Source: Aquisphaera giovannonii
GTDB lineage: Bacteria > Planctomycetota > Planctomycetia > Isosphaerales > Isosphaeraceae
Reading direction: 5' to 3'
Assembly: GCF_008087625.1 (NCBI RefSeq)
Contig: NZ_CP042997.1
Coordinates: 8,928,001-8,992,000 of the forward strand
Length of the DNA: 64,000 nucleotides
This document shows, piece by piece, positions 18,493 through 41,377 of this stretch. The translations under genes and the position numbers were made by a program. Under the pieces are notes generated by a model. The model saw only the letters and a list, made by a program, of their open reading frames with translations, was not told where the DNA came from and searched no databases. Position 1 is the stretch's first letter. Every line of letters begins with the position of its first letter.

Positions 18493-18958
18493 CGCCTGCC
18501 CCCGCTATTGCCCCTCGAATCCGACCGTGCCTCCAGGATACCGCCGCCGGGGCCGGCGGGTGAAGCGGCGGGGAGGAACGACCGCGGATCGCGGTGGAAC
18601 CGCGAGGGGCCCCCGGGCGTCGCACATGATAGGGACTCCCCCGCGCGAGGAAGCAAGTGGCGGGCCGCGGGCGTGAATCGCGGGTGGATTCTTGCTTGAA
18701 ATTCAGGTAGGTGGTAGTTTTAAGTTTCTCGGAGAGGGCGCAGGACCCGTCCCATCGCACGACGTGCAACGCCCCTTGACGCATCGTCCCTTGTCACGTT
18801 CGCGATCGTCCCCCGGTATATTCCGTTACGGATTTTTCTCGCGCGGTACGGTCGTGCCGCGATCGCAGCCCGAAGCCCACCTCGCGGCCGGCGCCCTCGC
18901 CCCGGGGCGTGGCGGCCTGCTCGCTCAATGTCAGTGTTCCGCCAGGGAGCTCAAGACC
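18493..18958. other. Divergent promoter region between uxaA and the T2SS-like locus
   Basis: 466 bases between divergent genes. The stretch at 18680-18740 is much more AT-rich than its surroundings and holds a candidate promoter for the plus strand. A TATATT hexamer near 18816 could be a second -10, but its possible -35 (TTGTCA) is 20 bases away. I see no gene. Confidence 0.5.
18696..18724 (+). promoter_or_regulatory. Candidate sigma-70-type promoter upstream of gspE1
   Basis: TTGAAA, 17 bases, TTTAAG. The -35 matches the consensus at five of six positions and the -10 at four of six. It lies in an AT-rich island 235 bases upstream of the gspE1 start. Confidence 0.35.
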
Positions 18959-20988: not shown

Positions 20989-21009
20989 CAGGGGAGGCGG
21001 GTGAAGGCG

Positions 21010-24250: not shown

Positions 24251-25495
24251 ATGCCGACGTATCAGTACGAGGCGATGGACCACACCGGCCGCGAGGTCAA
24301 GGACTCGATCGACGCCTCCACCCAGGAGGAGGCCGCCCAGCTCATCCGCCAGAAGGGCTTCTTCGTCACCAAGATCTCGGAGAAGGCCAAGAAGTCGGCC
24401 CGCAAGTCGGCGGCCAAGAAGGGCGGGCGGAAGAAGAAGAAGTCGTTCACGATCGGCCGGATCTCGACCAAGCAGCTCTGCACGTTCACCCGCCAGCTCT
24501 CCACGCTCCAGGACGCCGGCCTGCCGATCCTCCGGAGCCTGAAGATCCTGGAGGGCCAGTGCCGCCCCGGCGTGCTCAAGAACTCCCTCGGCGACGTGGT
24601 CGAGGACATCGAGAGCGGCATGACGCTCTCGGAGGCGTTCGCCAAGCACCCCAAGGCGTTCGACCGGCTCTACTGCAACATGATCAAGGCCGGCGAGGCC
24701 GGCGGCGCCCTGGAGGCCATCCTCCAGCGCCTGGCGGACTTCAAGGAGAAGTCCCAGAGCCTGAAGCGGCGGATCAAGTCGGCGATGGTCTACCCGCTCG
24801 TCGTGATCTCGGTCGCGTGCATCATCGTCGGCTTCATCCTCTACTTCATCATCCCGAAGTTCGAGGCCATCTTCAAGGACTTCGGCGTGCCCCTGCCGGG
24901 CATGACGACGTTCCTGATCGCCGCCAGCCACTTCGTGATCAAGTACTTCTATCTATGCTTCCTGGCGCCCCTGTTCTTCTGGATCTTCATCAAGCTCCTG
25001 TACCGGAATCGGACGGGTGCCTACGTCTGCGACCGAATATTACTCATGATCCCCGTCATGGGGACCATCGTGGAGAAGTCCACGGTGGCCCGGACCATGC
25101 GGACGTTGGGGACGCTCGTGCAGTCGGGCGTGCCGATCCTGGAGTCGCTGAACATCGTCCGCGACACGGCGGGCAACGCGGTCTTCGAGCGGGCGTTCAC
25201 GCGCATTTATGAGAGCATCCGCGAGGGCGAGACGATCGCCCAGCCGCTCCGCGAGTCGCGGATCGTGGACGACATCGTCGTGAACATGATCGACGTCGGC
25301 GAGGAGACGGGCGAGCTGGACACGATGCTCAACAAGATCGCCGACAACTACGACGAGGAGGTGGAGACGGCCGTGGAGTCGCTCGTGAGCCTCCTGGAGC
25401 CGATCATGATCGTCGTCCTGGGCGGCATCATCGGCTTCATCGTCATCGCCCTGTTCCTGCCGCTGATCACCCTGATCACCAAGCTGTCCGGCTGA
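24251..25495 (+). CDS. gspF: Inner-membrane platform protein GspF/PilC
   Basis: The protein has 414 residues, the usual length. GGAGGGA lies 10 bases before the ATG. Two T2SSF domains are visible (about 75-200 and 285-405), each with the block FTRQLSTLQDAGLPIL or ARTMRTLGTLVQSGVPIL. Three transmembrane segments lie near 185-207, 222-245 and 380-405. Between residues 45 and 65 there is a Lys-rich insert ('KKSARKSAAKKGGRKKKK'). GspF anchors the rotating ATPase under the growing pseudopilus. A strong hairpin follows the gene. Confidence 0.95.
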   Translation: MPTYQYEAMDHTGREVKDSIDASTQEEAAQLIRQKGFFVTKISEKAKKSARKSAAKKGGRKKKKSFTIGRISTKQLCTFTRQLSTLQDAGLPILRSLKILEGQCRPGVLKNSLGDVVEDIESGMTLSEAFAKHPKAFDRLYCNMIKAGEAGGALEAILQRLADFKEKSQSLKRRIKSAMVYPLVVISVACIIVGFILYFIIPKFEAIFKDFGVPLPGMTTFLIAASHFVIKYFYLCFLAPLFFWIFIKLLYRNRTGAYVCDRILLMIPVMGTIVEKSTVARTMRTLGTLVQSGVPILESLNIVRDTAGNAVFERAFTRIYESIREGETIAQPLRESRIVDDIVVNMIDVGEETGELDTMLNKIADNYDEEVETAVESLVSLLEPIMIVVLGGIIGFIVIALFLPLITLITKLSG

Positions 25496-25669: not shown

Positions 25670-26911
25670 ATGACCCGCCCCCGCCCCACCCACGACCGGC
25701 CCGACCCGACCCGCCGCGGCGGCTTCACGCTTGTGGAATTGCTGATGGTGATCGCCATCCTCGGCCTCCTGATCGCGCTCCTGCTGCCGGCCATCAACTC
25801 GGCCGTCAGGACCAGCCGGAAGGCCGCGATCGGGGCCGAGATCAACACGCTGGCCCAGGGCCTCAACGCCTTCAAGGCCCAGTACGGCGACTACCCGCCC
25901 AGCCGGGTCTACCTGGCCGAGAACGGCGACTTCGGCTCGGCCCAGGCCATCCAGATCGCCCCCGGCGACATCACCTTCGCACAGCTGTCCCAGCGTACCG
26001 TATCGTATCTCCGCAGATTCTTCCCGCGCGCCGTCCTGAACACCAGTGGCGGCAACGTCTGGGGCGCCTTGGGCTCGTCGCCGAAGGTCTGGTACGATTT
26101 CAACGGCAACGGGGTGATGGATCCCCCCTACATCCTGGAGGGCCACGAGTGCCTCGTCTTCTTCCTGGGGGGCATCCCGCTGAACAACGGGACGAGCTTC
26201 TCCATGACGGGGTTCGGCAAGGATCCGACCAACCCGTTCACGAACAACGGGGGCGTCATCAACTCCAGCGACAACCGCACGTCGCCGATGTTCGAGTTCG
26301 CCGCCAACCGGCTGGTCCTCGACCCGCTCCAGATACGCCGCTATCAGGGCGACGTCCCGCACTATCAGGCGGTCGCCTGGAACAGCCCCGCCTACGTCGA
26401 TAATTCGGGCAACGCGATCAACGATGTGGCCAGCGCGCAGATCAATTTCTACGCCTATTTCAGCGCCTACGGGAAGGGCGGCTACGACCCGAACGACGTG
26501 AACTTCCAGCTCGCCATCTCCTCGAACGAGGTCTACGGCGAGAAGGACGCCAATCTCGCCATCCCCATCCAGAAATTCCGGGTCGCCTATCCGATCCCGA
26601 CCACGGCGATCACGGGGGTGGCCAACGTCGCCGCATCGGCGCCGCCGAACCCGTACACGAGCAGCTCCACCGTCCCCGCGACCGGGACGGCGGTCCAGGC
26701 GCCGACGTTCCTCAACCCGCAGAGCTTCCAGATCATCTCGTCGGGCCCGGACGGCCAGTACGGGCTGGGCGGCATCTACCTGCCGGACTCCACCGGCGCG
26801 ACGGTCCTCCCCCTCGACCCCAATGCGGCCACCATCGGCACCTCGGACACGAGCATCCGGACCCGCGAGCGGGACAACGTGACGAACTTCCACAACGGCT
26901 CGCTCGATTGA
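25670..26911 (+). CDS. gspG: GspG-like pseudopilin, enlarged (first copy)
   Basis: The protein has 413 residues; ordinary GspG has about 140. A class III signal is cut after GG in 'RRGGFTLVELLMVIAILG', with Glu5 of the mature protein present and a hydrophobic helix behind it. The C-terminal block 'IISSGPDGQYGLGG' followed by RDNVTNF matches the calcium loop at the end of GspG. The added 270 residues between helix and loop are rich in Asn, Ser and Pro and look like an extra beta-domain. GspG polymerises into the pseudopilus shaft. It is the first gene after the hairpin that follows gspF. Confidence 0.88.
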   Translation: MTRPRPTHDRPDPTRRGGFTLVELLMVIAILGLLIALLLPAINSAVRTSRKAAIGAEINTLAQGLNAFKAQYGDYPPSRVYLAENGDFGSAQAIQIAPGDITFAQLSQRTVSYLRRFFPRAVLNTSGGNVWGALGSSPKVWYDFNGNGVMDPPYILEGHECLVFFLGGIPLNNGTSFSMTGFGKDPTNPFTNNGGVINSSDNRTSPMFEFAANRLVLDPLQIRRYQGDVPHYQAVAWNSPAYVDNSGNAINDVASAQINFYAYFSAYGKGGYDPNDVNFQLAISSNEVYGEKDANLAIPIQKFRVAYPIPTTAITGVANVAASAPPNPYTSSSTVPATGTAVQAPTFLNPQSFQIISSGPDGQYGLGGIYLPDSTGATVLPLDPNAATIGTSDTSIRTRERDNVTNFHNGSLD

Positions 26912-26969
26912 TCGTCGACGGCAACGGCAGGTGACAACCCGAGGGCCCGGAAAGGCGAGGCGTCGGACC

Positions 26970-28583
26970 ATGCGAAATCAGAGACCGAGAGCGACCCCGC
27001 GAAGCCGGCAGGCCGGCGGGGACGGGACGCCGCCGGGGGGGTGCGAATCCCACCGGGCCGCTCGACGGGCGGCCTTCACCCTGGTCGAGCTGCTGACCGT
27101 GATCGCGATCATCGGGATCATCATAACCCTGATCCTGATCGCGGCCAGTGGCGCCCAGCGGCAGGCGGAGATGGCCGCCACCCAGTCGCTGATCGCCAAG
27201 CTCGACTCCGCGATGAACGACCGCCTCGACGCCCTGCTCCAGACGCGGCCCGATTACAACCTGACGCACCGCTACATGGCGAGCGTGTACTACACCGACA
27301 GCAACGGCGTCTCCCGCCAGAGCGAGAGCCAGGCCAGGGCCCAGGTCATCGCCTGGTACGACTTCATCAAGGCGGAGATGCCCGACGTCTTCTACGTCTA
27401 CAACACGACCGGGCCGTACCCGCTCAACTTCGCCTTCCCGGAGAGCGGCCTGCCCGGCACCCCGATCGATTCCCAGGGGCTCGGGCACGTCATGCTGCCC
27501 CTCGGCAATTCGCTCCGGAACAACCCGTCCGGCAATAGCTTCGGGGACTCCAACTTCTCGAACACCGTGGGGACGGGGATCTACGGGGCGTCCTACTTCG
27601 CGGCCGCGGGGGTCTACAAGAACCTCGGATACCTGCCCGCGGGGTGGGACGGGGCGGACAACAGCACGTCCAGCGTCTCGGGCGGCGCCGGGCTGGTGGA
27701 CGAGTGGGGGGAGGGGGTGAATTCGACCAACTCCGCCCAGGTGGTGGCGAACCTCACCAACCACAAGCACCACACGGCCCGCGCCGAGATGCTCTATGCC
27801 CTCCTCGTCGAGGGGGTGGGGCCGCTCGGTTCCGCCTTCAGCCGCGACGACTTCACCGACAGGGAGGTCCGCGACACCGACGGCGACGGCCTCCCCGAGT
27901 TCGTGGACGCCTGGGGCAACCCGCTCCAGTTCTTCCGCTGGCCCATCCTCTACCCGACGGACGTGCAACGGGGGCAGTCGGAGGTCGTGGACTCCGGGAC
28001 GGGCCTGCTTACGCTGCTGCCCCCCTACTACTCGACGTCCGCCACGGCGGCGACGTTCCTCCCGCGCGAGAACTCCCCCCTCGATCCGAACAACCTGCTC
28101 GTGGCCCCCGCCTGGTGGTCGGCGACCCAGAATCCGATGTCCCCCTTCGGCATGGGCGCGACGTCGCAGAACGGCAGCCCGGCGGTGACCCTGTTCGAGA
28201 ATTTCTTCCACCGCCTCACCGAGCCGCTCCAGCACACGGGGAGCGTGATGGACTACTGGGACCGGGGCGGGAGCGCGGACTTCGGCTACCGCAGGGCCTT
28301 CTACACGAGGCCCCTGATCCTCTCCTCCGGCCCCGACGGGGCGCCCGGGGTCTACCTGATCCCCGACGGCGGAACCTCCTCCATGCCCCTCAACGCCGCG
28401 CACCTCATCCGCTTCGAGAACAACGCGCTGATCTTCGACCCGGTCGAGGCGGGGTTCAACGGCGAGGTGCTGGGGATCCAGAGCTTCGGGGCCGCCTCCA
28501 AGAGCTATGCGATCTGGCAGGCCGGCAAGGACGACATCACCAATCAGAACCGCCAGACCGCCGGCGGCGGGGGAGGGTCCTGA
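26970..28583 (+). CDS. GspG-like pseudopilin, enlarged (second copy)
   Basis: The protein has 537 residues from the ATG at 26970, which follows GAGGCG; a GTG at 26931 is a weaker option. The class III signal has an unusual Ala before the cut: RRAAFTLVELLTVIAIIG. Glu5 is kept. The C-terminal part repeats the GspG-like pattern: 'ILSSGPDGAPGVYLI' and KDDITNQN. The long middle domain is Asn/Ser/Tyr-rich and holds a short DTDGDGLPEFVD loop, which resembles a calcium-binding loop. It follows gspG1 directly and is followed by gspH after 2 bases. It may be a second shaft subunit or a shaft cap. Confidence 0.85.
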   Translation: MRNQRPRATPRSRQAGGDGTPPGGCESHRAARRAAFTLVELLTVIAIIGIIITLILIAASGAQRQAEMAATQSLIAKLDSAMNDRLDALLQTRPDYNLTHRYMASVYYTDSNGVSRQSESQARAQVIAWYDFIKAEMPDVFYVYNTTGPYPLNFAFPESGLPGTPIDSQGLGHVMLPLGNSLRNNPSGNSFGDSNFSNTVGTGIYGASYFAAAGVYKNLGYLPAGWDGADNSTSSVSGGAGLVDEWGEGVNSTNSAQVVANLTNHKHHTARAEMLYALLVEGVGPLGSAFSRDDFTDREVRDTDGDGLPEFVDAWGNPLQFFRWPILYPTDVQRGQSEVVDSGTGLLTLLPPYYSTSATAATFLPRENSPLDPNNLLVAPAWWSATQNPMSPFGMGATSQNGSPAVTLFENFFHRLTEPLQHTGSVMDYWDRGGSADFGYRRAFYTRPLILSSGPDGAPGVYLIPDGGTSSMPLNAAHLIRFENNALIFDPVEAGFNGEVLGIQSFGAASKSYAIWQAGKDDITNQNRQTAGGGGGS

Positions 28584-28585
28584 CC

Positions 28586-29998
28586 ATGGGCGCCAGAGCC
28601 GCACGCGGCCGCCGATCGGGCTTCACGCTCATCGAGCTGCTGATCGTCATCTCGATCATCCTGCTGGTGAGCGCGGCGACCCTGCCCGCCGTGGTGTCCG
28701 CCTACAACCATCGCCAGGTGAGCGAGGCGGCGCGGATCATCCAGGCGGCGCTCGTGGGGGCCCGCGACGCGGCGACGAAGAACGGCGCCCCGGCCGGGCT
28801 CCGCTTCCTGCCCGACCCGGCCCTCAACGTCTTCGACGGCACGACCCTGCGCATGGATCCGACGAAGATCCTGGCGGCCGATCGATTCGTCCCGATCCAG
28901 CTCGCGCCCGATTACACCGAGGGGCGGATCAGGATGATCGCGAGCGGCTCGACCCTCAACTACGACACCTCCGCCATAAACCCATACACTTACTTCATCT
29001 ATCCTCCGTCCAAGAGCCCCACGGGCGTGACGACCTACTATCCCGCCCTGTCGAACCGCCTGCTCTACGTCGAGCAGGAGGTCTTCGACAAGGACGGCCT
29101 GCTGAACCCGCCGACCTCGTGGTACTGGAACGTCCGCATCGGCGACAAGATCCAGATCAACAACACGGGCGTCTTCTACACGGTGGTGGGCCCGATGCAG
29201 GTGAACAACCCCGAGCTGTTCGTCAACGTGGGCGTGCCCGGCACCGTCCCGCCGATGAAAGCCGTGACGTCGGCCCAGGTGAGCGGGAACCACTATCCCG
29301 AGTTCCTCTTCCTGGTCAACGGCGTGGACGACGACCGCGACGGCTTCGTGGACAACGGGTGGGATGGCGTGGACAACGACCTCGACGGGGTGACCGACCG
29401 TGCCCCCGTCATCAGCTCCGCCGGCGTGGTCTCCTCCTACTGGGAATGGACGGAGACGGAGACCTGGCAGAGTTCGTCGACCAGTTATCTCACCCAGGGT
29501 CAGCTCCCCTACACGCTGGTCCGCCGGCCGGTGATCGCGCCCGGGGCCAGGGAGACCGGGCTGCCGTCGAACGTGGTCGTGGACCTGACGACGTGGAACG
29601 CGGCCGTCCCCGAGCGGTCCCGGGTGCCCCTCGACGCGACCAACGGCACCTTCGACATCCTGATCACCCCCGACGGCAGCGTCGTGCCGACGACCACGTA
29701 CTCGTCGCCGACGTCGTTCGGCATGGGCGCGTCGTTCTTCCACCTCTGGCTGGCGGAGCGGGGCGACCTGTACGACCCGATCACGCCGACCAGCCCGGCG
29801 GTCAATTACCTGCCGCAGGTGGCCAACGCCAACACGCCGGCGGGCGAGACCCGGTTCCTCAAGGGCGACCGGATGCTGCTGACGCTCTTCACGCGCAGCG
29901 GCCAGCTCGTCACGAACCCGATCGAGTCCTTCGACGCCCACAACGTGAACCTGCCGTTCGTGCTCCCGCAGCAGGGGATCAGGGGGGACAACCGATGA
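28586..29998 (+). CDS. gspH: GspH-like minor pseudopilin, enlarged
   Basis: The protein has 470 residues; usual GspH has about 170. The signal is [16 protein letters not shown], cut before Phe with Glu5 present. The next helix carries the GspH/FimT pattern 'ARIIQAALVGARDAATKNG'. The middle has 'PPTSWYWNVRIGDKIQIN' and a run of acidic loops around DDDRDGFVDNGWDGVDNDLDG that looks like calcium-binding type 3 repeats. The same parts recur in the paralogue at 41732-43060. The next gene starts in the stop codon of this one (ATGA, 29995-29998). Confidence 0.88.
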   Translation: MGARAARGRRSGFTLIELLIVISIILLVSAATLPAVVSAYNHRQVSEAARIIQAALVGARDAATKNGAPAGLRFLPDPALNVFDGTTLRMDPTKILAADRFVPIQLAPDYTEGRIRMIASGSTLNYDTSAINPYTYFIYPPSKSPTGVTTYYPALSNRLLYVEQEVFDKDGLLNPPTSWYWNVRIGDKIQINNTGVFYTVVGPMQVNNPELFVNVGVPGTVPPMKAVTSAQVSGNHYPEFLFLVNGVDDDRDGFVDNGWDGVDNDLDGVTDRAPVISSAGVVSSYWEWTETETWQSSSTSYLTQGQLPYTLVRRPVIAPGARETGLPSNVVVDLTTWNAAVPERSRVPLDATNGTFDILITPDGSVVPTTTYSSPTSFGMGASFFHLWLAERGDLYDPITPTSPAVNYLPQVANANTPAGETRFLKGDRMLLTLFTRSGQLVTNPIESFDAHNVNLPFVLPQQGIRGDNR

Positions 29999-31422
29999 AG
30001 ATCCGCACGACGGCCGGCCGAGCAGCCCCGAAGGGCCGGGCGGGCATCACGCTCACCGAGATCCTGATCGCGATCATGATCCTGGGCATCGGCCTGATCT
30101 CGCTGGCCACGCTCTTCCCGATCGGCCTGCTCCGGCTCCGCGAGGCCCAGCGGCAGACGCGGTCGTCGCTCCTCTTCGAGTCGGCCGCCTGCGACGTCGC
30201 CGCGCGGACGCTCTTCGACCGGAACTCGTTCCTCTACGTGGACCTGGTCAACAACAACTACGGCTGGCCCTTCTGGTACATCTCCGGCGGCGCCCGCTTC
30301 GACCCGCTCGTCCACGACACGCCCTACTACGGCGGGGCGCCGACCGGCGACGGCGCGGGCAACGGGGCCAGCTCCACGAGCTATGGCCTGCCGTTCGCTT
30401 ATGACCCGCTCTGGCGGCAGATCACGGTGCACCCGGTGACCGGGACGCCCGGGATCTACCTCGACCCGGTGAACCAGGACACCGCGGAATTCCGCTTCGC
30501 CGACGGCACCGGCCTGCTCCCCAACGACCCCGGCGGCGGCATCCCCAGCGCGCACGGCCTCCAGAGGCTGACCAACTTCAACCGGCCGGGCTTCGCCGGG
30601 ACCGGGCCGTCGGCCTTCGTGCCCTCGATCTTCGTGTCGCCGGAGGACGTCGTCTGGCAGGACTCGACGATCAACACGTACAACGTCGCATTTAACCCCA
30701 CCGTCGGGGTGGGGCCCTCCCCCAGCTCGGTCGTCCCCGACCTGAGCATGACCTACGACGCGGCGGGTAACCAGACTTATCAGCCGGTGAATGACTTCCG
30801 ATTCAGCTGGATGCTCACCGCCCACCAGGCCAACGGCTCCGCCGGCGCGGCGTTCGACGGGAACGTGGTCATCTTCGAGAACCGGATCTTCGGCACCGAG
30901 CCCGCCCCCGCCCCGGCCAACTTCCGCGCGGCCGGCGAGTTCGTCTGCGAGGGCGTCTTCGGCGCCAGCAAGAACGTCCAGCTGGCGGCCAACGCCGCGA
31001 CCATCGGCAGCTACGGTTACGGCATGGGCGCGGATCGGACCGTCCTCATCCGCTGGTCGAACACCCTCGCCGACCCCGTCGTGAAGGTGGGCGACTGGAT
31101 CGCCGACGTGACCTACGAGCGGAATCAGCTGGTGGTCGCCAAGCGTTTCCTGTTCAACTCGGGCGTCGGCGCGGCGAGGGCCTCCACCCTCGAGTGGGAC
31201 AACATGCCGGCCCAGCGCTGCTACTGGTATCAGGTCCAGAAGGTGACCCCCGCCCAGGACGACACCACGAAGGCCGGCTTCCGATCCATGACGGTCTACA
31301 CGAACAGGAAGCTCGAGGCGCGGACGGTGCTGAATACCGCCGGCAACCCGCTCTACCAGAACGCCGTGCTGATCTGCCCCCAGGTCGTCAACGTGATCCC
31401 GCAGACCTTCTTCCTCCGCTGA
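29995..31422 (+). CDS. gspI: GspI/PilV-like minor pseudopilin, enlarged
   Basis: The protein has 475 residues; usual GspI has about 125. It has a strong ribosome binding site AGGGGGG and an ATGA overlap with gspH. The signal is 'KGRAGITLTEILIAIMILGIG', cut after Gly with Glu5 present. 'IGLISLATLFPIGLLRLREAQ' after it is the PilV/GspI pattern. The rest is a long Asn/Gly/Pro-rich globular region with no domain that I recognise. In the standard T2SS, GspI forms the core of the pseudopilus tip with GspJ and GspK. Its position between H and J supports the call. Confidence 0.83.
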   Translation: MKIRTTAGRAAPKGRAGITLTEILIAIMILGIGLISLATLFPIGLLRLREAQRQTRSSLLFESAACDVAARTLFDRNSFLYVDLVNNNYGWPFWYISGGARFDPLVHDTPYYGGAPTGDGAGNGASSTSYGLPFAYDPLWRQITVHPVTGTPGIYLDPVNQDTAEFRFADGTGLLPNDPGGGIPSAHGLQRLTNFNRPGFAGTGPSAFVPSIFVSPEDVVWQDSTINTYNVAFNPTVGVGPSPSSVVPDLSMTYDAAGNQTYQPVNDFRFSWMLTAHQANGSAGAAFDGNVVIFENRIFGTEPAPAPANFRAAGEFVCEGVFGASKNVQLAANAATIGSYGYGMGADRTVLIRWSNTLADPVVKVGDWIADVTYERNQLVVAKRFLFNSGVGAARASTLEWDNMPAQRCYWYQVQKVTPAQDDTTKAGFRSMTVYTNRKLEARTVLNTAGNPLYQNAVLICPQVVNVIPQTFFLR

Positions 31423-31477
31423 GCTCGGGGATGTCCACCGAAACGCATCGCTCGCCGTCCTTTGCAGGGGCCTTGCC

Positions 31478-33736
31478 GTGAGACAACGCCGACACAACCC
31501 GGATGCCCGCCGAGCCGCGAACGCCAGGGCGAATCGCCGCGGCGTCACGCTCATCGAGATGCTGGTGACGCTGGCGGTGCTGCTGGTCATGATGACGCTC
31601 GTCGTCCGGATCTTCCAGGCGGCCACCGGCTCGCTGAACGCGGCCCAGGTGTACCAGGAGATCGACGGCCAGTTCCGACGGCTGGACAGCGTCATCCGCT
31701 CGGACCTCGCCGGCGCCACCGCGAAGATGACGCCGCCCAACGACCCGCAGAACCACACGGGCTACTTCGAGTACATCGAGAACGAGTTCGCCGACATCCA
31801 GGGCGAGGACTGCGACGACGCCATCCGGATGACCGTCAAGGCCCCCGCCGGCCGCCCCTTCACCGGCCGCGTCTGGCTGCCGCCGCCGAATCCCTCCACC
31901 CTGACCGCCGTCGAGGCGAGCAACTACTTCAGCTCGACGGCCAGCTTCCAGCCCATCACCGTCACCAGCGACTTCGCCGAGGTCATCTACTTCCTCCGCA
32001 ACGGCAACCTCTACCGGCGAGTCCTCCTGGTCGCCCCGGAGCGGCAGGCCTCGATCGTGCCGACGCTCAACAACACCGCCACCATCATGGTCGGCACGCC
32101 GTCCACGCCCGCCACGATGCCCACGTCGCCGCCCTCGCCGTTCCTGTCCTCGTTCATGCCGACGGGCCTGAATTCCCTCCAGGTGAGCTGGCAGTCGATG
32201 AACGACCTGTCGGCCCACCCGGCCCCCCGGGGCACGCCCTACAACGGCAACGTGGTGATACTCAACACCCTGAGCGACCTGACCGACCGGGAGAATCGCT
32301 GGCCCAACCAGCGCTTCGCCGACGACTTCCTGAATCTCTCCGGCGTCGATGCCCCCGACGGCCTGGCGGACGATTTCAATCAGGACAACGTCCCGGACTA
32401 TTACCCGACGCTCTACCCGACGGTCATCAGCGCCCCGGTCAACAACACGCTCGTCTGGGAGCCGGTCCCTTATCCCCGTACGCACATGCCGGCCATGGCC
32501 TTCCCGTTCGTGTTCCCGGGGATGTACTCGAGGCCGCAGGTCTGGAACACGGGCGGCCTGAATCCCGGCTGGATCCACTCGCCGGAGCCCCTGGCCGGCG
32601 CGGCCCTCAATCAGTACGACCAGGCCCCCCTGGCCTATCTCAACAGCATCAACCACGCCCCGATCGACATCGGCGACAACCTCCCGGTGCCGATCACGGG
32701 GGCGACCGGCGGCAGCAGCGAATATCAGACGTGGTGGGGCTTCCCGACCTGGCGGGAGACCCTCTCGCCATTCTGGACCGACCCGACCTACCCGGTGCAG
32801 GGCGTGACCAGCATCGGCCTGGCTCCCGGGCAGCCGCGGGGCCTGGCCTACCAGGATGCGTCCGCGACGGTCGTCTCGGATAGCGGGAACCTGCTCCCGG
32901 CGATGAACGGGAACTATCGCGTCATCCCGCAGCCCTTCACCGACGGGATGGGGACGGGCGTGGACGGTGCGGGGAACGGATTCTTCGTGTCCACCAACGC
33001 CGCGACCAACACGGCGCTCTCGAACCTGTGGAACTCGGGCTGGGAGGACGACCTCGTCATGACGGGCGTCCGCAGCTTCGACATCAAGGCCTATGACAAC
33101 AGCCTGGGGACGTACGCGGACCTCGGCTGGGGCGACGACCCCAGGCTGACCACCACGCTCGTCGGGGGCAGCACCACGGCCGGAGGCGTCACCACCCCCA
33201 CCCCCATGGGTACGACGCTCTTCACGCCGTACCTGTACGGCAACTACGACGCGTACAACGGAGCCTACGCCTTCCCGGCCTACGCCAACGTCAACGGCGG
33301 CTTCTTCGACGTGGTGAATCAGACCTTCGCCCACGAGGGACGCATGCCGCCGCTGGTCAACGACAATCGACTGGATGCCTCGAACCCGAACCCGACGTAC
33401 GTCAGCCCCACGAGTTACACGCCAGCGTATCCCGCCGTGCCGACTTACTCGAGCAACGTCGGGGACGACAACGTGAGCATCTTCCGCCTGCGGCGGACGT
33501 GGGACTCGTGGTCCACCGCCTACACCAAGGCCCCGGCCACGGGCATCAACCCACCGAGGTCTCCCCTGCCGGGCTTCCCGGCCGGGCCGCCGTTCTCGCC
33601 GCCGATCTACCCGTCGTACCCGGCGCCCTACCCGGCGCCGCTGCGGGGGATCCAGATCCAGGTGCGGGTCACGGACCCGACCAGCCAGCGTATCAAGACG
33701 TTGACGATTCGACAGGATTTCACGGATAAGCTGTGA
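31478..33736 (+). CDS. gspJ: GspJ-like minor pseudopilin, enlarged
   Basis: The protein has 752 residues; usual GspJ has about 200. The start is a GTG at 31478. The signal is 'NRRGVTLIEMLVTLAVLLVM', cut after Gly with Glu5 present. 'IDGQFRRLDSVIRSDLAGAT' after the helix fits GspJ. The middle and C-terminal parts are Asn, Tyr and Pro-rich with many short repeats of the form 'PNP..YVSP'. The last 60 residues return to a GspJ-like strand set ('LRGIQIQVRVTDPTSQRIKTL'). So the family core appears split by an insert of about 500 residues. Confidence 0.83.
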   Translation: MRQRRHNPDARRAANARANRRGVTLIEMLVTLAVLLVMMTLVVRIFQAATGSLNAAQVYQEIDGQFRRLDSVIRSDLAGATAKMTPPNDPQNHTGYFEYIENEFADIQGEDCDDAIRMTVKAPAGRPFTGRVWLPPPNPSTLTAVEASNYFSSTASFQPITVTSDFAEVIYFLRNGNLYRRVLLVAPERQASIVPTLNNTATIMVGTPSTPATMPTSPPSPFLSSFMPTGLNSLQVSWQSMNDLSAHPAPRGTPYNGNVVILNTLSDLTDRENRWPNQRFADDFLNLSGVDAPDGLADDFNQDNVPDYYPTLYPTVISAPVNNTLVWEPVPYPRTHMPAMAFPFVFPGMYSRPQVWNTGGLNPGWIHSPEPLAGAALNQYDQAPLAYLNSINHAPIDIGDNLPVPITGATGGSSEYQTWWGFPTWRETLSPFWTDPTYPVQGVTSIGLAPGQPRGLAYQDASATVVSDSGNLLPAMNGNYRVIPQPFTDGMGTGVDGAGNGFFVSTNAATNTALSNLWNSGWEDDLVMTGVRSFDIKAYDNSLGTYADLGWGDDPRLTTTLVGGSTTAGGVTTPTPMGTTLFTPYLYGNYDAYNGAYAFPAYANVNGGFFDVVNQTFAHEGRMPPLVNDNRLDASNPNPTYVSPTSYTPAYPAVPTYSSNVGDDNVSIFRLRRTWDSWSTAYTKAPATGINPPRSPLPGFPAGPPFSPPIYPSYPAPYPAPLRGIQIQVRVTDPTSQRIKTLTIRQDFTDKL

Positions 33737-33833: not shown

Positions 33834-36800
33834 ATGTTGGCCGGAACGAGGACTCGCCGCGGACGCCGGCGCGGGGTCATCCTGATCCTGGTGCTCGGCA
33901 TCCTGGGGCTCATGGCCGTCATCGGCATCACCTTCGCGACCCTGTCGGGCCAGGCGAGGGTGGGGGCCCGGCAGAACGCCCAGGCCATGCAGCAGCCCCA
34001 GCGGGACGAGCTCTTCGACTACGCCCTCTCGCAGCTCATCAGCGACACGGCGGACATCCGCTCGGCGATCCGCGGCCACGGCATGGCCCGCGACATGTTC
34101 GGCAACGACGCCAACCGCAACGGGTACCTCACCCAGAGGCCCGACGGCCTGCGGATGGCCCCCAACAACGACGCCTTCTTCTACATCACGGCGGTCGCCT
34201 CGGCGGGCGGCACGCTCTACGACCTGACCACGAACATCCCGACCGCGGACAACGCGTTCTACGGGTACGACTTCACGCGATGGACCCTCCGGGTGGCCAT
34301 GCTCACCGCCCCGACGAGCCCCGCCACGGGCGTCGTCAACCAGTCGCTCGAGGTGCTCATCGACAACACGTCGGGGGCCAACCACGTCTTCCGCGTGAAC
34401 ATCGCCCCGACCGACGCCGCCACGACGCTCCTCAACCCGACCGTCACCCCGACGCACGCCGCGGGCTACACGACGCAGCTGCCCGGCGATTACCTGGTCG
34501 CGGCCGCGGGCGGCGGTGCGGTGGGCACCCAGCAATTCATCCTCGACGGCCGCTGGCTGCACGCCTTCAATGGGCCGGGGATGGGGAGCAACGCCTACAA
34601 GGGCAACTTCCGGTTCAACGGCGTGGACCCGAACTCGGCCGGCATGGACGAGGACTACGACGCCGCCGACCTGGAGAACTGGTTCCTCGCCCTCCAGAGC
34701 GCCGACGGCACCGTGATGGTCCCCTCGTTCCACCGGCCCGGCATCGTCCGCTACGACATCTCCGCCACGACGACCACGCCGATCAACGACTGGGATGCCG
34801 ACTACTACGTCTCCGGCCCCGCCGCCTGGCGGGAGGCGGCCCAGCGCGTCCTCCGGCCGCGGAGGGTCGACGGCCACGACGGGACCACCTTCCCCGACCT
34901 GATCCCCGACGAGACCGGCCGGCTCACCTTCGACGTGGACAACGACAGCGACGGCAAGACCGATTCCGTGTGGGTGGACCTCGGCTACCCGGCTAGGACC
35001 AACGCCCAGGGGCAGCTCTACAAGCCCCTCTTCGCCTTCATGGTCGTCGGGCTCAACGGCCGGATCCCGCTGAACACCGCCGGCAACCTCGCGGGCAACG
35101 GCTCGACGCACGCCGCCCACCTGGGCAACTCGGTCAGCGAGGTGGACCCGACCTACGGCCTCCAGAACGGGGTCACCCCGACCACCAATCAGAGCGACAA
35201 CTCGGGCCAGGACGTGCGCCTGACCCAGCTCCGCAACCTGCTGGCCGGCACCCGCACCTTCGACAACGACAGCCCGACCTCCTACCCCTACGCCCCCGTG
35301 CCGGGCCTCTCCCAGACCAACGGCGACGCCAACTGGGTCCAGGTGGGATTCGACGCGGCCACCGGCTCGCCGATCCCCATCTACATGCCGAACGGGAAGG
35401 TCGATGCGGGCGTCGATTATCGCGCCGACGTCGCGGCGACCATCGTCAGCGATCCGGCCAACCAGGCCGTGATGCGGAGCACCGAGCCGATCGCGGGCCG
35501 CTGGGGCGAGGCCCAGGCCGTGCCGGGCAACCCGACGCTCAACCCGAACACCGGGACGCCCATGAACCTCCTGGGCCAGGGCTACAACAACCAGGTCCGG
35601 GCCGGCTACTCGCTGGATCCGACCGACCAGGTCAGCGGCCAGGCCCGGGACGCGGCCGACGACAACTTCAACTCCTTCGACCCCTACCCGCCGCTGTCCG
35701 CCCGCACGGGCGAGGTGGACGACCTGGATTTCCTCGACCCCGCCGGCGGCTACCTGATGCCCGTCGAGCGGATGCGGCGGTTCGTCACGCCGCCGGACAT
35801 CAACGGCTCGGGTGCGGTCGTCCAGTGGGACGGCATCGCGACCTCCGCCGGGGCCAACCGCGGTGCGGACCAGTGGGGGCGGGTGGAATTCAGCAGCTAC
35901 TTCCGCCCGCCGGGCCTCCCCGGGACCATCGCCCCCGGGGCCGGCGCGACGGCGATCGGCTTCCCCTGGGCCGACACCGACCCCTACCCCGCGACGATGG
36001 TGTCGAACACGACGGGCAACTCCCTCCTCAACAACAACAACCCGCTCCACGGCTTCCTGGCCCAGTGCTTCCCGAACCTGAATTACACCGGCGGATTCAC
36101 CCCCCAGCGCGTGGGCGGCGTCCCCGTGGACCTGAACACCAAGGCGGCCCCGCTCAGGTACCTCCCCAACACGCTGCCGACCTATGACATGGGGGCGAAC
36201 GCGCGGCAGAGGTCCGACGGCCTCAACGAGGCCGACGAGATGAACCTCTACGCGCCCAACGCCCAGCTCGACGCCCCCTTCGGCTACGCCGACCTCGAGT
36301 GGCTCTACCGCGGGCATGACGTGGACGGCACCTCCCTGACGTCCCGCCTGTCGAAGCTCGCCCCGGTCAGCTTCCGGAACCCGGTGGACAGCACCCGCCA
36401 CCGCCGCCTCTTCTCGGTCGACACGTGGGAGACGACCAACTTCTCCTGGGCGAGCGACCGCCCCGTGAACACCTTCAACCCGGCCAGCCCCGGCCTGAAT
36501 TTCACGAACAACAGCCGCTTCGCGTCGGGCAACGCCGGCTTCAGGAACATCCCCGTCGTCCCCGCCACCACGCCCCCGACGTCCGTGCCGACCGCGTCGC
36601 TGATGCACCGGGATCGCAAGATCAACCTGAACTACCCGCTGCCGGTCTCGAACGACCCGAATGAGTCCGTCCGCCAGAAGTGGATCGCGGACGCGTACTA
36701 CACGCTCAAGGCCATCCTCCCGCCGCGATCGGTGGACTCGCCCGAGGAGCTGGCCCAGCTGAGCCAGTTCGTGATCAACATCGTCGACTTCCGCGACACC

Positions 36801-39800
36801 GACGCGACGATGACCCACTGGCGGAACCCGGACGTCTGGCTCCGCCCCGGCACGACGGTCGCGCCGTATGTCGTCCTCACGGCCAACAAACTGGCGACGG
36901 ACATGCCGCTGGACCAGTACGGGATGGAGCACAACCCGGTCGCCATCAACGAGGTCCTGGCCTACTGCTTCAACCGCAAGACCGGCACCGGCGGCGGCAA
37001 TACCCCCACGCCCCGGTTCTTCATCGAGCTGGTGAACACCCTCAGCGCCCCGGAGCTCGGCAACAACACGAATGCCGGGCTGGGGACGCCGCTCAACAAT
37101 GCCAGCGTCCTGGACCTCGCCGGGTTCCTCTCCAACTCGACCCCGGCCCCGCCGACCCCGTGGGACGGGGCCTGCTGGGACCTCGTGTTCACGGCCGACA
37201 ACCCGGTCAGCCGGCCCGACCCGATCCTCGGGCAGTTGCAGCCGGGGGGGACGTTCTATTCGCTCTTCCCGTTCTCCCAGTCGAGCGTCATGGCGGCCAC
37301 GCCCGCGATGACCCCGACGCCGCCCCCGACCGGCGATCCGGTGCTCCTGCCCCTGCCCCAGGCGCCCAGCCCGAAGAATACCAGCATGTACATGGGCGAC
37401 CCCGCGAAGACGGCCACGGCGGGGGGCACGGGCGCGGCGGCCACGCTGAGCCACAACCTCTACTTCATGACCATCGGCAACGCGGCGCCGGCCGGCGGCG
37501 CGGAGTCCGCCCCGCCGGTGACGTCCTACCAGTTCCAGGCCTCCTGGGATCCCGTCACCGGGTCGGCCCCGACGGGCGCGATCCCGGCGGGCGTCCTGCC
37601 GCCGCCCGCGGTGGGGGGCACGGTGCCGACCGTCTACCCGGCGGCCAAGCTCCCCCAACCCGCCGCGGGGAGGTCCGCCTTCTACTGGGTCTGCCTGCGG
37701 AGGCCGGCGAACCCGTTCGCCCCGGTCTCGGCCACCAATCCGATGATCGTCGTCGACTGCATGCGGTTCCCCTACACGGAGGCCGGCGGCACGGGCACCA
37801 CGTCCGGGGGCATGGACACCGCCACGACGGGCAGCAACAACATCTATTCGTACCAGCGGTTCCAACCCTATCGCGGCGGCCAGGCCGTGCCCTACGGCAC
37901 GAGCACGGGCATCTCGGACCCCAGGTATGGGTACAGCGAGCAGATCGCGCCCCCCGCCACCAATTCGGGGAACGTCGGCAAGTACGGCACCGCCACGAAC
38001 AACATCACCCAGCCGATCTACCACACCCTGGGCGCCCCCAACGACTACACCTGGGATAACCTCACGACCAACCCCTCGATCTACGAGGCGTGGGACTACT
38101 TCCCCTTCAACGACCGCGACTTCACCAGCGTCGCCGAGCTGATGATGGTCCCCGGCTGCCCGCCCGGCCTGTTCACCAAGCAGTTCGTCGAGTTCGCCCC
38201 GTCGTCCGCGACCGCGAACAACCTGAAGTCGGTGACGCCCCTGAGGACGCCGACGCCCGCGACGCTGCCGACCTACGGCGACTTCTCCAAGAGCTCCACC
38301 GCGCTGGATTACCCGGCCGCCCCCGCGGCCGCGCCGGCCACCCCGTTGACGCCGCACACGTTCCCCTACCTGGTGGACAAGTTCTTCTACACCGCCGCGT
38401 CCCCGGCCACCGTGCCGCCGAACGGGAGGTTTGGCGACCAGACCGGCGACGGCTGGTTCAAGATGTTCGAGTTCTTCGAGGTCCCCAGCCAGGTGAACGG
38501 CTCGATCGGCTCGGTGGCCCAGGGGATGAACTTCGACTGGGCGCGCCAGGACACCAGGCCCGGCCAGATCAACCTCAACCTGGTCGTGGACGAGGAGGTC
38601 TTCTTCAGCGTCTTCGGCAAGCAGGACGGGAGCTTCCAGCAGAACCTGCTGAACTTCGCCGAGCTCACCCCGCCGACGTGGACGGGCGGCATCTGGCCCC
38701 CGCAGATCGGCAGCACGACCCCGTACCCCCCGCTGCCGGTGGGCACGCCCCCGGTCCCGCTCGTGGTCAGCGCCCAGAATGCATTCGGGGCACCGAGCTA
38801 CGCCTACCCGATGCCCAATGTGGGGATGGGCTACCTGGACCCGATCACCAACACGTATCTGAACCACATGAAGGCGTCGTTCGCGCAGTTCCTCACGCTC
38901 CGCCACGGCGGCTCGGGGTTCGTCTTCGGCTACGGCAAGGGGGCGCCGGGGCAGAATTACGCGGTGCAGCTCGCCGCCGCCAACCCGAACGCCCCGACCT
39001 TCGCCAACCTGCCCCGCAACCCGATCCCGGCCGACCGCCCGTTCCGCTCGCTCTCGTACCCGGACATCAACTACACGGTGATGCGGCCCGCGGCGCTGCC
39101 GCTGTCGCCGTACACCGATCCGAAGCCGAGCACCGCCGCGGTCGCCTGGCCGCCGACCGGCTACACGGGGAACTATGCGGGCGACCCGGGCCTGCGGAAC
39201 CCGTCGATCCATCACGCCTACATCACGAGCGTGCCCGGCGCGACGCCGACGCCGCCCAACGGCCCCGCGAGCACCCCCGGGAGTCGGCTCCATCTCCCCC
39301 CGCCGATCCCGGCGCGGCGGCTCTTCCAGCCGGCCGACCGGAGCACGGCCAGCAACGCGAACGTGGCCGGCGACCCCTACGTCAACAACACGAAGCCGGT
39401 CACCGCCACCGTGGCCACCGGCGCCCTGCCCCCCTGGGGCGGCGTGGGCATCAACGACGGCGTGCCCTCGATCTACTGGCCCACGACCGAGACGCTCCCC
39501 TATGCCGCGGGCACGCTCGGCAACGACAACAGCACCGCGACCGTCCCCTGGAAGATCGATCGCCGGCAGCACCCGTACTTCCGGTCCGAGCAGCTCCAGA
39601 AGGCCATGAACCTGACCACCGTGCGGACGCACCAGTATGCGGTCTGGATCACGGTCGGGTTCTTCGAGGTCACGCGGACGGGGGACCTGGGGATGCTGGC
39701 CGCCCCGTCGGTCTCGCCGACCCTGGCCTTCGACATCCTCGGCCCGGAGATCGGGGCGGCGACCGGCCAGGCGGGCCGCTATCGCGGCTTCTTCATCGTG

Positions 39801-39884
39801 GACCGCCTCAAGCTCACCGGCTTCGACCCCAACACGCCGGGGAGCTTCCGCCCGGCGGTGATGTATCGCCAGACGATCGAATGA
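33834..39884 (+). CDS. gspK: Giant GspK-like minor pseudopilin (2016 residues)
   Basis: Usual GspK has about 330 residues. The ATG at 33834 follows GGGGAGG; an upstream in-frame GTG at 33783 has no such site. The N-terminus 'RRRGVILILVLGILGLMAVIG' is a class III signal without Glu5, as in GspK. 'ARVGARQNAQAMQQPQRDELF' after it also fits GspK. A loop DVDNDSDGKTDSVWVDLGYP lies near residue 370. The rest is Pro, Asn, Thr and Gly-rich with many short strand segments and no domain that I can name. It may form a very large pseudopilus tip. The frame is unbroken over 6 kb with normal codon use, so its size is real. It is the last gene of the G-H-I-J-K order. Confidence 0.85.
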   Translation: MLAGTRTRRGRRRGVILILVLGILGLMAVIGITFATLSGQARVGARQNAQAMQQPQRDELFDYALSQLISDTADIRSAIRGHGMARDMFGNDANRNGYLTQRPDGLRMAPNNDAFFYITAVASAGGTLYDLTTNIPTADNAFYGYDFTRWTLRVAMLTAPTSPATGVVNQSLEVLIDNTSGANHVFRVNIAPTDAATTLLNPTVTPTHAAGYTTQLPGDYLVAAAGGGAVGTQQFILDGRWLHAFNGPGMGSNAYKGNFRFNGVDPNSAGMDEDYDAADLENWFLALQSADGTVMVPSFHRPGIVRYDISATTTTPINDWDADYYVSGPAAWREAAQRVLRPRRVDGHDGTTFPDLIPDETGRLTFDVDNDSDGKTDSVWVDLGYPARTNAQGQLYKPLFAFMVVGLNGRIPLNTAGNLAGNGSTHAAHLGNSVSEVDPTYGLQNGVTPTTNQSDNSGQDVRLTQLRNLLAGTRTFDNDSPTSYPYAPVPGLSQTNGDANWVQVGFDAATGSPIPIYMPNGKVDAGVDYRADVAATIVSDPANQAVMRSTEPIAGRWGEAQAVPGNPTLNPNTGTPMNLLGQGYNNQVRAGYSLDPTDQVSGQARDAADDNFNSFDPYPPLSARTGEVDDLDFLDPAGGYLMPVERMRRFVTPPDINGSGAVVQWDGIATSAGANRGADQWGRVEFSSYFRPPGLPGTIAPGAGATAIGFPWADTDPYPATMVSNTTGNSLLNNNNPLHGFLAQCFPNLNYTGGFTPQRVGGVPVDLNTKAAPLRYLPNTLPTYDMGANARQRSDGLNEADEMNLYAPNAQLDAPFGYADLEWLYRGHDVDGTSLTSRLSKLAPVSFRNPVDSTRHRRLFSVDTWETTNFSWASDRPVNTFNPASPGLNFTNNSRFASGNAGFRNIPVVPATTPPTSVPTASLMHRDRKINLNYPLPVSNDPNESVRQKWIADAYYTLKAILPPRSVDSPEELAQLSQFVINIVDFRDTDATMTHWRNPDVWLRPGTTVAPYVVLTANKLATDMPLDQYGMEHNPVAINEVLAYCFNRKTGTGGGNTPTPRFFIELVNTLSAPELGNNTNAGLGTPLNNASVLDLAGFLSNSTPAPPTPWDGACWDLVFTADNPVSRPDPILGQLQPGGTFYSLFPFSQSSVMAATPAMTPTPPPTGDPVLLPLPQAPSPKNTSMYMGDPAKTATAGGTGAAATLSHNLYFMTIGNAAPAGGAESAPPVTSYQFQASWDPVTGSAPTGAIPAGVLPPPAVGGTVPTVYPAAKLPQPAAGRSAFYWVCLRRPANPFAPVSATNPMIVVDCMRFPYTEAGGTGTTSGGMDTATTGSNNIYSYQRFQPYRGGQAVPYGTSTGISDPRYGYSEQIAPPATNSGNVGKYGTATNNITQPIYHTLGAPNDYTWDNLTTNPSIYEAWDYFPFNDRDFTSVAELMMVPGCPPGLFTKQFVEFAPSSATANNLKSVTPLRTPTPATLPTYGDFSKSSTALDYPAAPAAAPATPLTPHTFPYLVDKFFYTAASPATVPPNGRFGDQTGDGWFKMFEFFEVPSQVNGSIGSVAQGMNFDWARQDTRPGQINLNLVVDEEVFFSVFGKQDGSFQQNLLNFAELTPPTWTGGIWPPQIGSTTPYPPLPVGTPPVPLVVSAQNAFGAPSYAYPMPNVGMGYLDPITNTYLNHMKASFAQFLTLRHGGSGFVFGYGKGAPGQNYAVQLAAANPNAPTFANLPRNPIPADRPFRSLSYPDINYTVMRPAALPLSPYTDPKPSTAAVAWPPTGYTGNYAGDPGLRNPSIHHAYITSVPGATPTPPNGPASTPGSRLHLPPPIPARRLFQPADRSTASNANVAGDPYVNNTKPVTATVATGALPPWGGVGINDGVPSIYWPTTETLPYAAGTLGNDNSTATVPWKIDRRQHPYFRSEQLQKAMNLTTVRTHQYAVWITVGFFEVTRTGDLGMLAAPSVSPTLAFDILGPEIGAATGQAGRYRGFFIVDRLKLTGFDPNTPGSFRPAVMYRQTIE

Positions 39885-40075: not shown

Positions 40076-41377
40076 ATGAACCCCCGTCGTCGAGGCTTCA
40101 CCCTAATCGAACTGCTGGTGGTGATCAGCATCATCGGCGTGCTCGTCGGCCTGCTCCTGCCGGCGATCAACTCCGCCCGCGAGGCCGGCCGCCGCGCCCA
40201 ATGCCAGAACAATCTCAAGAACGTCGGGCTGGCACTCACCCAGTTCTCCACGGCCAAGAACTCGTTCCCGAACTCGGGCGTCTTCTTCGAGGACGCGACG
40301 AAAGTCAACCCGCAGAATCCCACCACCTCCTCGATCTACCTGGCGACCAGCCTGCAGAGCGCCCCCTCCGGCCTCTCCGCCTCGTCCCTGGTCTACACGT
40401 GGGGGAGGAGCTGGGTCGTCTCGATCCTGCCCTACCTGGACCAGCAGGACCTGGCGAATGCCTGGGACAACGATGGGAATTACCTCGAGACGGCCACGAC
40501 CGGCACGGCGCTCCAGGCCAGCAACTACACGATCGGCAGCACGGCGCTGGCGATCCTGCGGTGCCCGGATGACCTTAATGCCCAGGACGGCAAGGGCAAC
40601 CTGAGCTACGTGGTCAACGGTGGCTTCTCCCGCTTCCCGACCGTTCCGATCGCCTGGCAGGGCACCGTGGCCAACGGGCAGAATGCCGGGTTCACCCTCC
40701 AGTGGCTGACCTCCGCCGACGGGCCGGCCACCGCGCAGAGCATCGGCGTGAGGCTCGGCGTCATGTTCCCGGGTGCTGTCGTTCACAGCGGGCAGACGGC
40801 CGGCACGGGCCTCGGGACCACCAAGTTCTCCTGGAATACCAACACGACCCTCAGCAGCATCCAGGACGGGCTGAGCAACACGATCCTCGTCAGCGAGAGC
40901 ACCACCGCGGGCTACGCGGCCCAGGGCCAGGGTATCTTCTCGGACGTCGAGACGAACTGGGCCTGCCCGCACCCGAACTTCACCTCGTTCATGGCGTCGG
41001 ACAACGTCTGCGGCGGGGCTGACGGTCAGGGCACGACCGGAGCTTGCTACAACGCGGGGCTCGGCCCCAAGAATGCTACGGGCGGGCAGGTTGATGGCGG
41101 CAACTGGGATTTCGCCAACAAGCTGGGCACGTTCGAGAATATCGGCTACGGCTTGAGCGGCGCCCTCAAAGGCGGCTTCCCCTACATCAACAGCGGCCAT
41201 CCGGGTGGATTCAACGTCACGATGTGCGACGGGTCGGTCCACTACGTGAAGAACCAGATCAGCGGCACGGTCTTCTCCAAGATCGTGACCTCCGCCGGCA
41301 GCAAACTGCCCCCGGCCGCCGCGGGCTTTGGCGGCCTGCTGCAGCTCCCCGTGAATCAGGACGAGTATGCCCAGTAA
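40076..41377 (+). CDS. DUF1559 / H-X9-DG pseudopilin-like protein
   Basis: The protein has 433 residues. GAAAGGA precedes the ATG. N-terminus [20 protein letters not shown] is a class III signal. Then comes the family block '[23 protein letters not shown]'. The C-terminal motif [12 protein letters not shown] is the H-X9-DG signature. DUF1559 proteins are very abundant in planctomycetes and have an N-terminus like pseudopilins, but their role is not established. It lies 191 bases after the giant GspK gene and is followed by a good terminator, so it may be an extra pilus-like subunit or an independent gene. Confidence 0.93.

What the first reader, a model, noticed from the sequence alone, without database searches (positions are those of the whole stretch)
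33834..39884. The GspK-like protein is one of the largest single genes expected in such a locus and has no recognisable domain after the N-terminus
About 1950 residues follow the signal and first helix without a family I can name. Short acidic loops such as DVDNDSDGKTD may bind calcium. In the T2SS, GspK caps the tip, so an enlarged cap could be a binding or adhesion head.
Basis: partly seen in the sequence, partly recalled or inferred. Interest (0 to 1): 0.6.

Follow-up and report, generated by a model that had tools for sequence, protein, structure and literature searches.

The report
Giant planctomycete pilus-tip protein (GspK-like)
This 2016-residue protein is most likely the enlarged tip subunit of a pilus/secretion machine found throughout the Planctomycetia; its body, which plain searches cannot name, keeps weak but ordered traces of the tip protein GspK and carries a probable lamin-tail-like (immunoglobulin-type) domain.

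Summary
The ORF is real: 2016 aa from ATG 33834 to 39884, with a Shine-Dalgarno. Plain profile and PDB sequence searches give no hit. The body still has recognisable structure. (1) The gene is the last of a 4+6 operon (GspE-type ATPase, PilT, GspE-type ATPase, GspF, then six pilin-type genes) conserved across the class Planctomycetia. Profile search finds the protein in 74 of 79 good genomes, usually at 1450-2900 aa, so its size is the rule here. (2) Profile-profile comparison with canonical GspK gives hits in GspK's own order: prepilin helix without Glu5, INLN...VDFRDxD at ~930-990, NLN...R at ~1577-1690, C-terminal strands at ~1925-2016. None of 120 column shuffles reaches the two body scores. 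(3) Residues ~1033-1318 look like a lamin-tail domain: the motif was noticed first, then lamin tails ranked first and second in the structural comparison (Z 5.3, moderate). (4) One acidic loop, 369-377, is about 97% conserved in the class and fits a DxDxDGxxD calcium loop. No internal repeats and no adhesin or enzyme match were found. Best reading: a giant GspK-type tip pseudopilin with inserted domains. A binding or adhesion role is plausible but unshown.

The parts
33834..39884 (+). K: giant GspK-type pseudopilin, 2016 aa
33834..34043 (+). residues 1-70: prepilin leader RRRG, hydrophobic N-terminal helix without Glu5, and second helix
   Evidence: hhalign to canonical GspK E 7e-7 to 1e-6; AF2 helices 16-52 and 57-70
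34170..34553 (+). residues ~113-240: predicted six-stranded beta-barrel
   Evidence: AF2; Foldseek E 0.013, prob 0.97, and VIA Z 8.2 to the FAD-binding barrel of siderophore-interacting proteins; fold likeness only
34623..34739 (+). residues 264-302: class-wide motif GMDEDYDAxDLxNWFLA...PSFHRP
34932..34964 (+). residues 367-377 DVDNDSDGKTD: probable calcium-binding loop (DxDxDGxxD at 369-377)
   Evidence: conservation in 64 sequences
35022..35084 (+). residues 397-417 KPLFAFMVVGLNGRIPLNTAG: strand plus first NLN-type motif
   Evidence: only weak hhalign to GspK (P 0.0055)
36615..36821 (+). residues 928-996 RKINLN...QFVINIVDFRDTDATMT: match to GspK first helical (SAM-like) region
   Evidence: hhalign A3 vs GspK score 41.5, 0 of 120 shuffles, GspK columns 104-169
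36930..37787 (+). residues ~1033-1318: probable lamin-tail (Ig-like) domain, INEVLA...RFFIELVN...LRRPANP...NPMIVVD
   Evidence: VIA-align rank 1 and 2 = lamin B1 (Z 5.3, 106 aligned) and lamin A/C; Pfam LTD E 0.0018 in one relative, below cut-off
38556..39089 (+). residues 1575-1752 PGQINLNLVVDEEVF...R...RPFRS...DINYT: match to GspK second helical (helix-hairpin-helix) region
   Evidence: hhalign A9 (same block of relatives) vs GspK score 45.2, E 1.3e-5, 0 of 120 shuffles
39606..39881 (+). residues 1925-2016 NLTTVRTHQYAVWITVGFFEV...DR...IE: C-terminal strands, match to the GspK last strands
   Evidence: same alignment, GspK columns to 310; AF2 strands
18692..20710 (+). GspE/PilB-type ATPase (E1)
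   Evidence: Pfam T2SSE 1.4e-136, MshEN
21001..22122 (+). PilT-type (retraction) ATPase
   Evidence: Pfam T2SSE 5e-52; the PilT label rests on sequence and knowledge of the family
22401..24116 (+). GspE/PilB-type ATPase (E2)
   Evidence: Pfam T2SSE 2.5e-136
24251..25495 (+). GspF/PilC inner-membrane platform
   Evidence: Pfam T2SSF 2.8e-69
25670..26911 (+). GspG-like pseudopilin, 413 aa
   Evidence: N_methyl; TIGR01710 8.7e-12 over the N-terminus, below its cut-off
26970..28583 (+). second pilin-type protein
   Evidence: N_methyl
28610..29998 (+). GspH-like pilin-type protein, about 462 aa (start approximate)
   Evidence: N_methyl; TIGR01708 6.1e-9, below its cut-off
29995..31422 (+). GspI-position pilin-type protein, about 474 aa
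   Evidence: prepilin motif (N_methyl E 2.3e-4), gene order
31478..33736 (+). GspJ-position pilin-type protein, 752 aa
   Evidence: N_methyl, gene order
40076..41377 (+). DUF1559 pilin-type protein, follows K in most Isosphaeraceae examined
   Evidence: Pfam PF07596 7.7e-38

Best explanation
The protein is the GspK-position tip (cap) pseudopilin of a probably retractable type IV pilus/T2SS-like machine conserved in the class Planctomycetia. Like canonical GspK it would be cut by the prepilin peptidase, lack Glu5, and sit above I and J at the tip, where it starts and caps the filament (inferred). Its fold would be a GspK fold pulled apart: the prepilin helix, then GspK's two helical-region motifs and its last strands, in GspK order. 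Extra domains are placed between them, including a beta-barrel near the N-terminus and a lamin-tail-type Ig domain between the first and second helical regions. The filament would present a head roughly six times GspK size, which probably recognises a secreted or imported ligand or anchors the filament to the envelope (inferred). A conserved DxDxDGxxD loop probably binds calcium structurally (inferred).
For: Shown: the 4+6 gene order in Isosphaeraceae and, over the parts held, in other families, complete in three of the four f2 genomes examined. End-to-end family in the class; profile of the first half found in 87 of 99 Planctomycetia genomes, 74 of 79 good ones. Single copy in this genome. 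Helix profile match to GspK (E 7e-7). Body matches at GspK columns 104-169 (score 41.5) and 226-310 (45.2, E 1.3e-5), with highest shuffle scores 19.9 and 20.8. A GspK HMM run over 94 relatives hits at median relative positions 0.01, 0.46, 0.84, 0.88, with 85/22/45/19 sequences against 9/2/2/0 for reversed sequences. Lamin-tail motif noted before the structural comparison, which ranked lamin tails first and second of 437 chains. Loop conservation. Secretins elsewhere in the genome. Precedent: GspK and ComZ carry domains inserted in the pilin sheet, and modular pilins are common (PMC8179133).
Against: Pfam T2SSK does not hit P0001, and per-sequence GspK body hits are weak (best 0.012). HHalign probabilities are 56-81% for the body blocks. 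Adding distant relatives to the middle block weakened its match (P 0.008). Foldseek finds no PDB match at E<=0.001; the models are moderate (pLDDT 64-66) and cover halves only, so the split pilin sheet is not seen in one model. The lamin-tail Z of 5.3 is below the level that rules out a common arrangement. Tip location and function are untested.
Confidence: 0.7

Rival explanations
1. The enlarged body is a dedicated adhesin or ligand-binding head for surfaces or polysaccharides, used in attachment or in capture for uptake. This is a use of the tip-pseudopilin identity rather than a different identity.
For: Modular pilins with binding modules are common (PMC8179133). Dextran binds pili-like fibres of P. 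limnophila and Gemmata (PMC5394234). A PilT-type gene is in the operon. The variable loops lie in the body.
Against: No adhesin or carbohydrate-binding family is matched. About 950-1230 residues of the protein are conserved class-wide, unlike fast-evolving adhesins. No link between this operon and those fibres has been shown; in Singulisphaera the pili genes reported up on chitin are largely Tad-type, with PilT among them (PMC11279305).
Confidence: 0.35
2. The head is a structural or substrate-gating element of a secretion machine (true T2SS-like use), for example docking into the secretin or recognising exoproteins, with no contact to the outside. Also a use of the tip-pseudopilin identity.
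For: GspK caps the T2SS pseudopilus and minor pseudopilins are implicated in substrate binding (PMC7248040). High conservation of the body. A P. limnophila locus of the same 4+6 make-up is discussed as secretion-related (PMC10632474). Lamin-tail domain as a proposed anchor in another planctomycete protein (PMC6461901).
Against: A PilT-type ATPase, usual in pili and not in T2SS (PMC7248040), is in the operon. No GspC, GspL or GspM was seen among the annotated operon genes (not searched genome-wide).
Confidence: 0.4
3. The protein is only N-terminally a pilin: a prepilin-type signal joined to an unrelated giant domain, with no GspK descent in the body.
For: Only the N-terminus matches strongly. 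No Pfam body hit.
Against: Two body blocks match GspK in the correct order, above all 120 shuffles and reversed controls.
Confidence: 0.15
4. Frame artefact or chance long ORF in GC-rich DNA.
For: A 1954-aa antisense ORF exists at the same place, showing that long chance frames occur.
Against: Conserved protein in the + frame in dozens of genomes, ribosome-binding site, codon GC pattern.
Confidence: 0.01

Closest known systems
GspK, T2SS minor pseudopilin (PF03934 family; E. coli gspK b3332)
   Same: Prepilin helix without Glu5; position after I and J; two NLN-started helical-region motifs and last strands in the same order
   Different: 2016 aa against 327 aa; large inserts; lamin-tail-like and beta-barrel domains; below the Pfam cut-off; operon with PilT
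Plim_0410-Plim_0401 locus of Planctopirus limnophila (PMC10632474)
   Same: 4 T2SS-type genes followed by 6 Planctomycetes-restricted unknown proteins, the same count and order as here
   Different: Published as of unknown function; its sequences were not held here, so the identity is inferred from layout in related genomes
Verru_Chthon cassette protein A (TIGR02600)
   Same: Large protein with a GspK-like N-terminus in a pilin gene set (the latter from memory)
   Different: No NCBIfam hit to P0001; relatives ring almost only at the first ~80 positions, never over the cut-off
Lamin tail domain (PF00932)
   Same: Motif order and fold rank for residues 1033-1318
   Different: Below the Pfam cut-off; longer, with inserted loops
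Modular pilins (S. sanguinis PilB, T. thermophilus ComZ, ETEC CofB)
   Same: Extra domain grafted onto or inserted into a (mostly tip-located) pilin (PMC8179133)
   Different: Different added domains; the largest modular pilin singled out in that survey is an 860-residue protein

Membership tests
GspK (T2SS minor pseudopilin) | Prepilin-type N-terminus, hydrophobic helix, no Glu at +5 | tested here: met
   RRG|VILILVL; position +5 is V, L or F in most relatives; hhalign E 7e-7
GspK (T2SS minor pseudopilin) | Encoded right after the H, I, J-type genes of the same operon | tested here: met
GspK (T2SS minor pseudopilin) | Pfam T2SSK (PF03934) over the gathering score | tested here: not met
   0 hits to P0001; the only genome hit is a ComEA-like protein
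GspK (T2SS minor pseudopilin) | Two SAM/helix-hairpin-helix regions inserted before the last pilin strands | tested here: inconclusive
   Significant, ordered profile-profile matches, but no structural match in PDB searches
GspK (T2SS minor pseudopilin) | Forms the I-J-K tip complex | not testable with these tools
   needs biochemistry or complex prediction
Verru_Chthon cassette protein A (TIGR02600) | Score over 332.3 bits across 1296 positions | tested here: not met
Lamin tail domain (PF00932) | Pfam gathering score | tested here: not met
   best 19.1 bits in a relative, cut-off 34.3
Lamin tail domain (PF00932) | Ig-like LTD fold | tested here: inconclusive
   rank 1 and 2 lamin tails, Z 5.3 and 3.7
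Type II secretion system | Secretin present in the genome | tested here: met
   3 secretins, none in the window operon
Type II secretion system | GspC, GspL, GspM present | not tested
   not searched genome-wide

The most novel reading that the evidence does not exclude
The giant K protein is the ligand-capturing tip of the planctomycete-specific retractile fibre system that takes up macromolecules (the fibres of the crateriform structures), and is important for growth, as the Planctopirus limnophila locus may imply.
Probability: 0.15. Interest if true: 0.85.

Novelty: new variant of a known kind. Interest (0 to 1): 0.55.

Why it matters
Planctomycetes take up whole macromolecules by an unknown route and bear unexplained fibres and outer-membrane craters (PMC5394234). 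A class-wide pilus/secretion operon whose pilin-type proteins are about 2.5 to 6 times the size of the E. coli T2SS counterparts, ending in a giant tip protein with a probable lamin-tail domain, is a concrete candidate part. It also gives Plim_0406-0401, reported as Planctomycetes-restricted unknowns in a published essentiality study, a testable identity as pseudopilins.

Tried and rejected
Pfam, NCBIfam, PHROGs and PDB sequence searches with the single protein and with block alignments: no body family over a cut-off. Single-sequence E. coli GspK against the family profiles: only the helix; a 20-member GspK alignment was needed. Verru_Chthon A: almost only the N-terminus. Internal repeats: none by TRF, self-blastp or block-against-block hhalign; the one strong pair is two overlapping blocks. 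GspK identity of the one Pfam T2SSK hit in the genome: it is ComEA-like. FAD-barrel likeness of residues 113-240 taken as fold only, because no nucleotide-binding partner domain was seen. Foldseek searches of both half models gave nothing at E<=0.001, and no pilin or GspK chain appears among the listed rows.

Full report
What is there. Window 33834-39884 (+) encodes a 2016-aa protein with a ribosome-binding site and coding-type codon composition. The window lies in a 10.5-Mb genome. The named relatives found by the genome scan include Aquisphaera, Paludisphaera and Singulisphaera, so the host is most likely an Isosphaeraceae-type planctomycete (inference). The protein is single-copy there.

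Pfam, NCBIfam, PHROGs and the PDB sequences give nothing, and neither do block alignments, apart from chance-level rows and one lamin-tail hit in a relative.

Family. Protein search found homologues in 49 of 59 relatives; a profile of the first half found them in 87 of 99 Planctomycetia genomes, 74 of 79 of good quality. Most are 1450-2900 aa. In the wider phylum sample, genomes outside the class match mostly at the N-terminal helix only. A genome scan returned end-to-end relatives in Isosphaeraceae, Pirellulales, Thermoguttaceae and others. Conservation is in blocks; about 950-1230 of 2016 positions are occupied class-wide and the rest are variable loops.

Operon. The order is E1, PilT, E2, F, then six pilin-type genes G, p2, H, I, J, K. 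The same order holds across Isosphaeraceae (the 5' ATPase genes lie beyond the held flank in many of those loci). In Pirellulales and allies E1/PilT-E2-F precede the weakly matching pilin genes. It is complete in three of four f2 genomes examined; the fourth has the six pilin genes without the ATPase genes in the held stretch. The other pilin-type genes are about 413-752 aa and K is 2016 aa, where E. coli T2SS genes G-K are 125-327 aa. A Tn-seq paper describes a P. [quoted passage not shown] The layout match makes it very likely the same operon. The main text does not state essentiality gene by gene, and the supplement could not be read.

GspK in the body. A 20-member alignment of canonical GspK was built from planctomycete genomes and E. 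coli. Against it the N-terminus scores E ~7e-7. The middle block A3 (residues 630-1085) aligns RKINLN...IVDFRDTD with GspK columns 104-169, score 41.5. The C-terminal block of relatives (A9) aligns PGxINLNT...R...NLVTTRSNVYAVW with columns 226-310, score 45.2, E 1.3e-5. The best of 120 column shuffles scored 19.9 and 20.8, and the reversed profiles about 12. These two alignments were chosen after several block choices had been tried, and some other block choices gave weaker matches in the same places (P 0.001-0.008), so the E-values should be read with that in mind. A GspK HMM over 94 full-length relatives finds the four regions at median relative positions 0.01, 0.46, 0.84 and 0.88; reversed sequences almost never match the body regions. 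The simplest reading is a GspK fold with long inserts. The single hits are weak, so this is strong as a pattern and not as a Pfam membership.

Lamin-tail domain. The motif INEVLA...RFFIELVN...LDLxG was read in residues 1025-1310 and noted. Pfam LTD then hit one relative of 32 at E 0.0018, below its cut-off, and none of 39 more distant ones. AlphaFold2 on residues 890-2016 (pLDDT 66, pTM 0.78), compared by VIA-align, ranked lamin B1 first (Z 5.3, rmsd 3.9, 106 aligned of 118) and lamin A/C second. Foldseek itself had no match at E<=0.001. I rate the domain probable.

N-terminal half. AlphaFold2 on residues 1-1085 (pLDDT 64, pTM 0.57) shows the long helix and a beta-barrel at 113-240 like the FAD-binding barrel of siderophore-interacting proteins (VIA Z 8.2; Foldseek E 0.013). 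This is a common barrel and shows no function.

Calcium. The loop at 367-377 has D369, D373, G374 and D377 at about 97% in 64 sequences. It fits DxDxDGxxD. Binding is inferred.

Function. GspK caps the T2SS pseudopilus (PMC7248040). Pilins with inserted or grafted domains are widespread and often bind ligands (PMC8179133). Planctomycete fibres bind dextran (PMC5394234). None of this has been tied to this operon. I therefore commit to the tip-pseudopilin identity (0.7) and leave secretion, uptake and attachment as open uses.

Noticed in passing
window 25670-33736: The other pilin-type genes of the operon are also about 2.5-4 times longer than their E. coli T2SS counterparts, so enlargement is not special to K.
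   Followed up: partly
window 18692-20710 and 22401-24116: Two GspE/PilB-type ATPases with MshEN domains in one operon, on either side of a PilT-type gene.
   Followed up: partly
L168, L190: Some planctomycete contigs carry two neighbouring K-type genes of about 1570-1660 aa (the second in L190 is cut by the stored stretch).
   Followed up: no
genomes of other planctomycete classes, e.g. L100, L103, L119: Many other long (900-1900 aa) proteins with GspK-like N-termini, some with a helix-hairpin-helix hit, that are not clear members of this family.
   Followed up: partly
G123: One small genome with ten such GspK-like N-termini, mostly on separate long ORFs.
   Followed up: no
L001 (G000:C1:6225481): The genome's only Pfam T2SSK hit is a ComEA-like helix-hairpin-helix protein.
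   Followed up: yes
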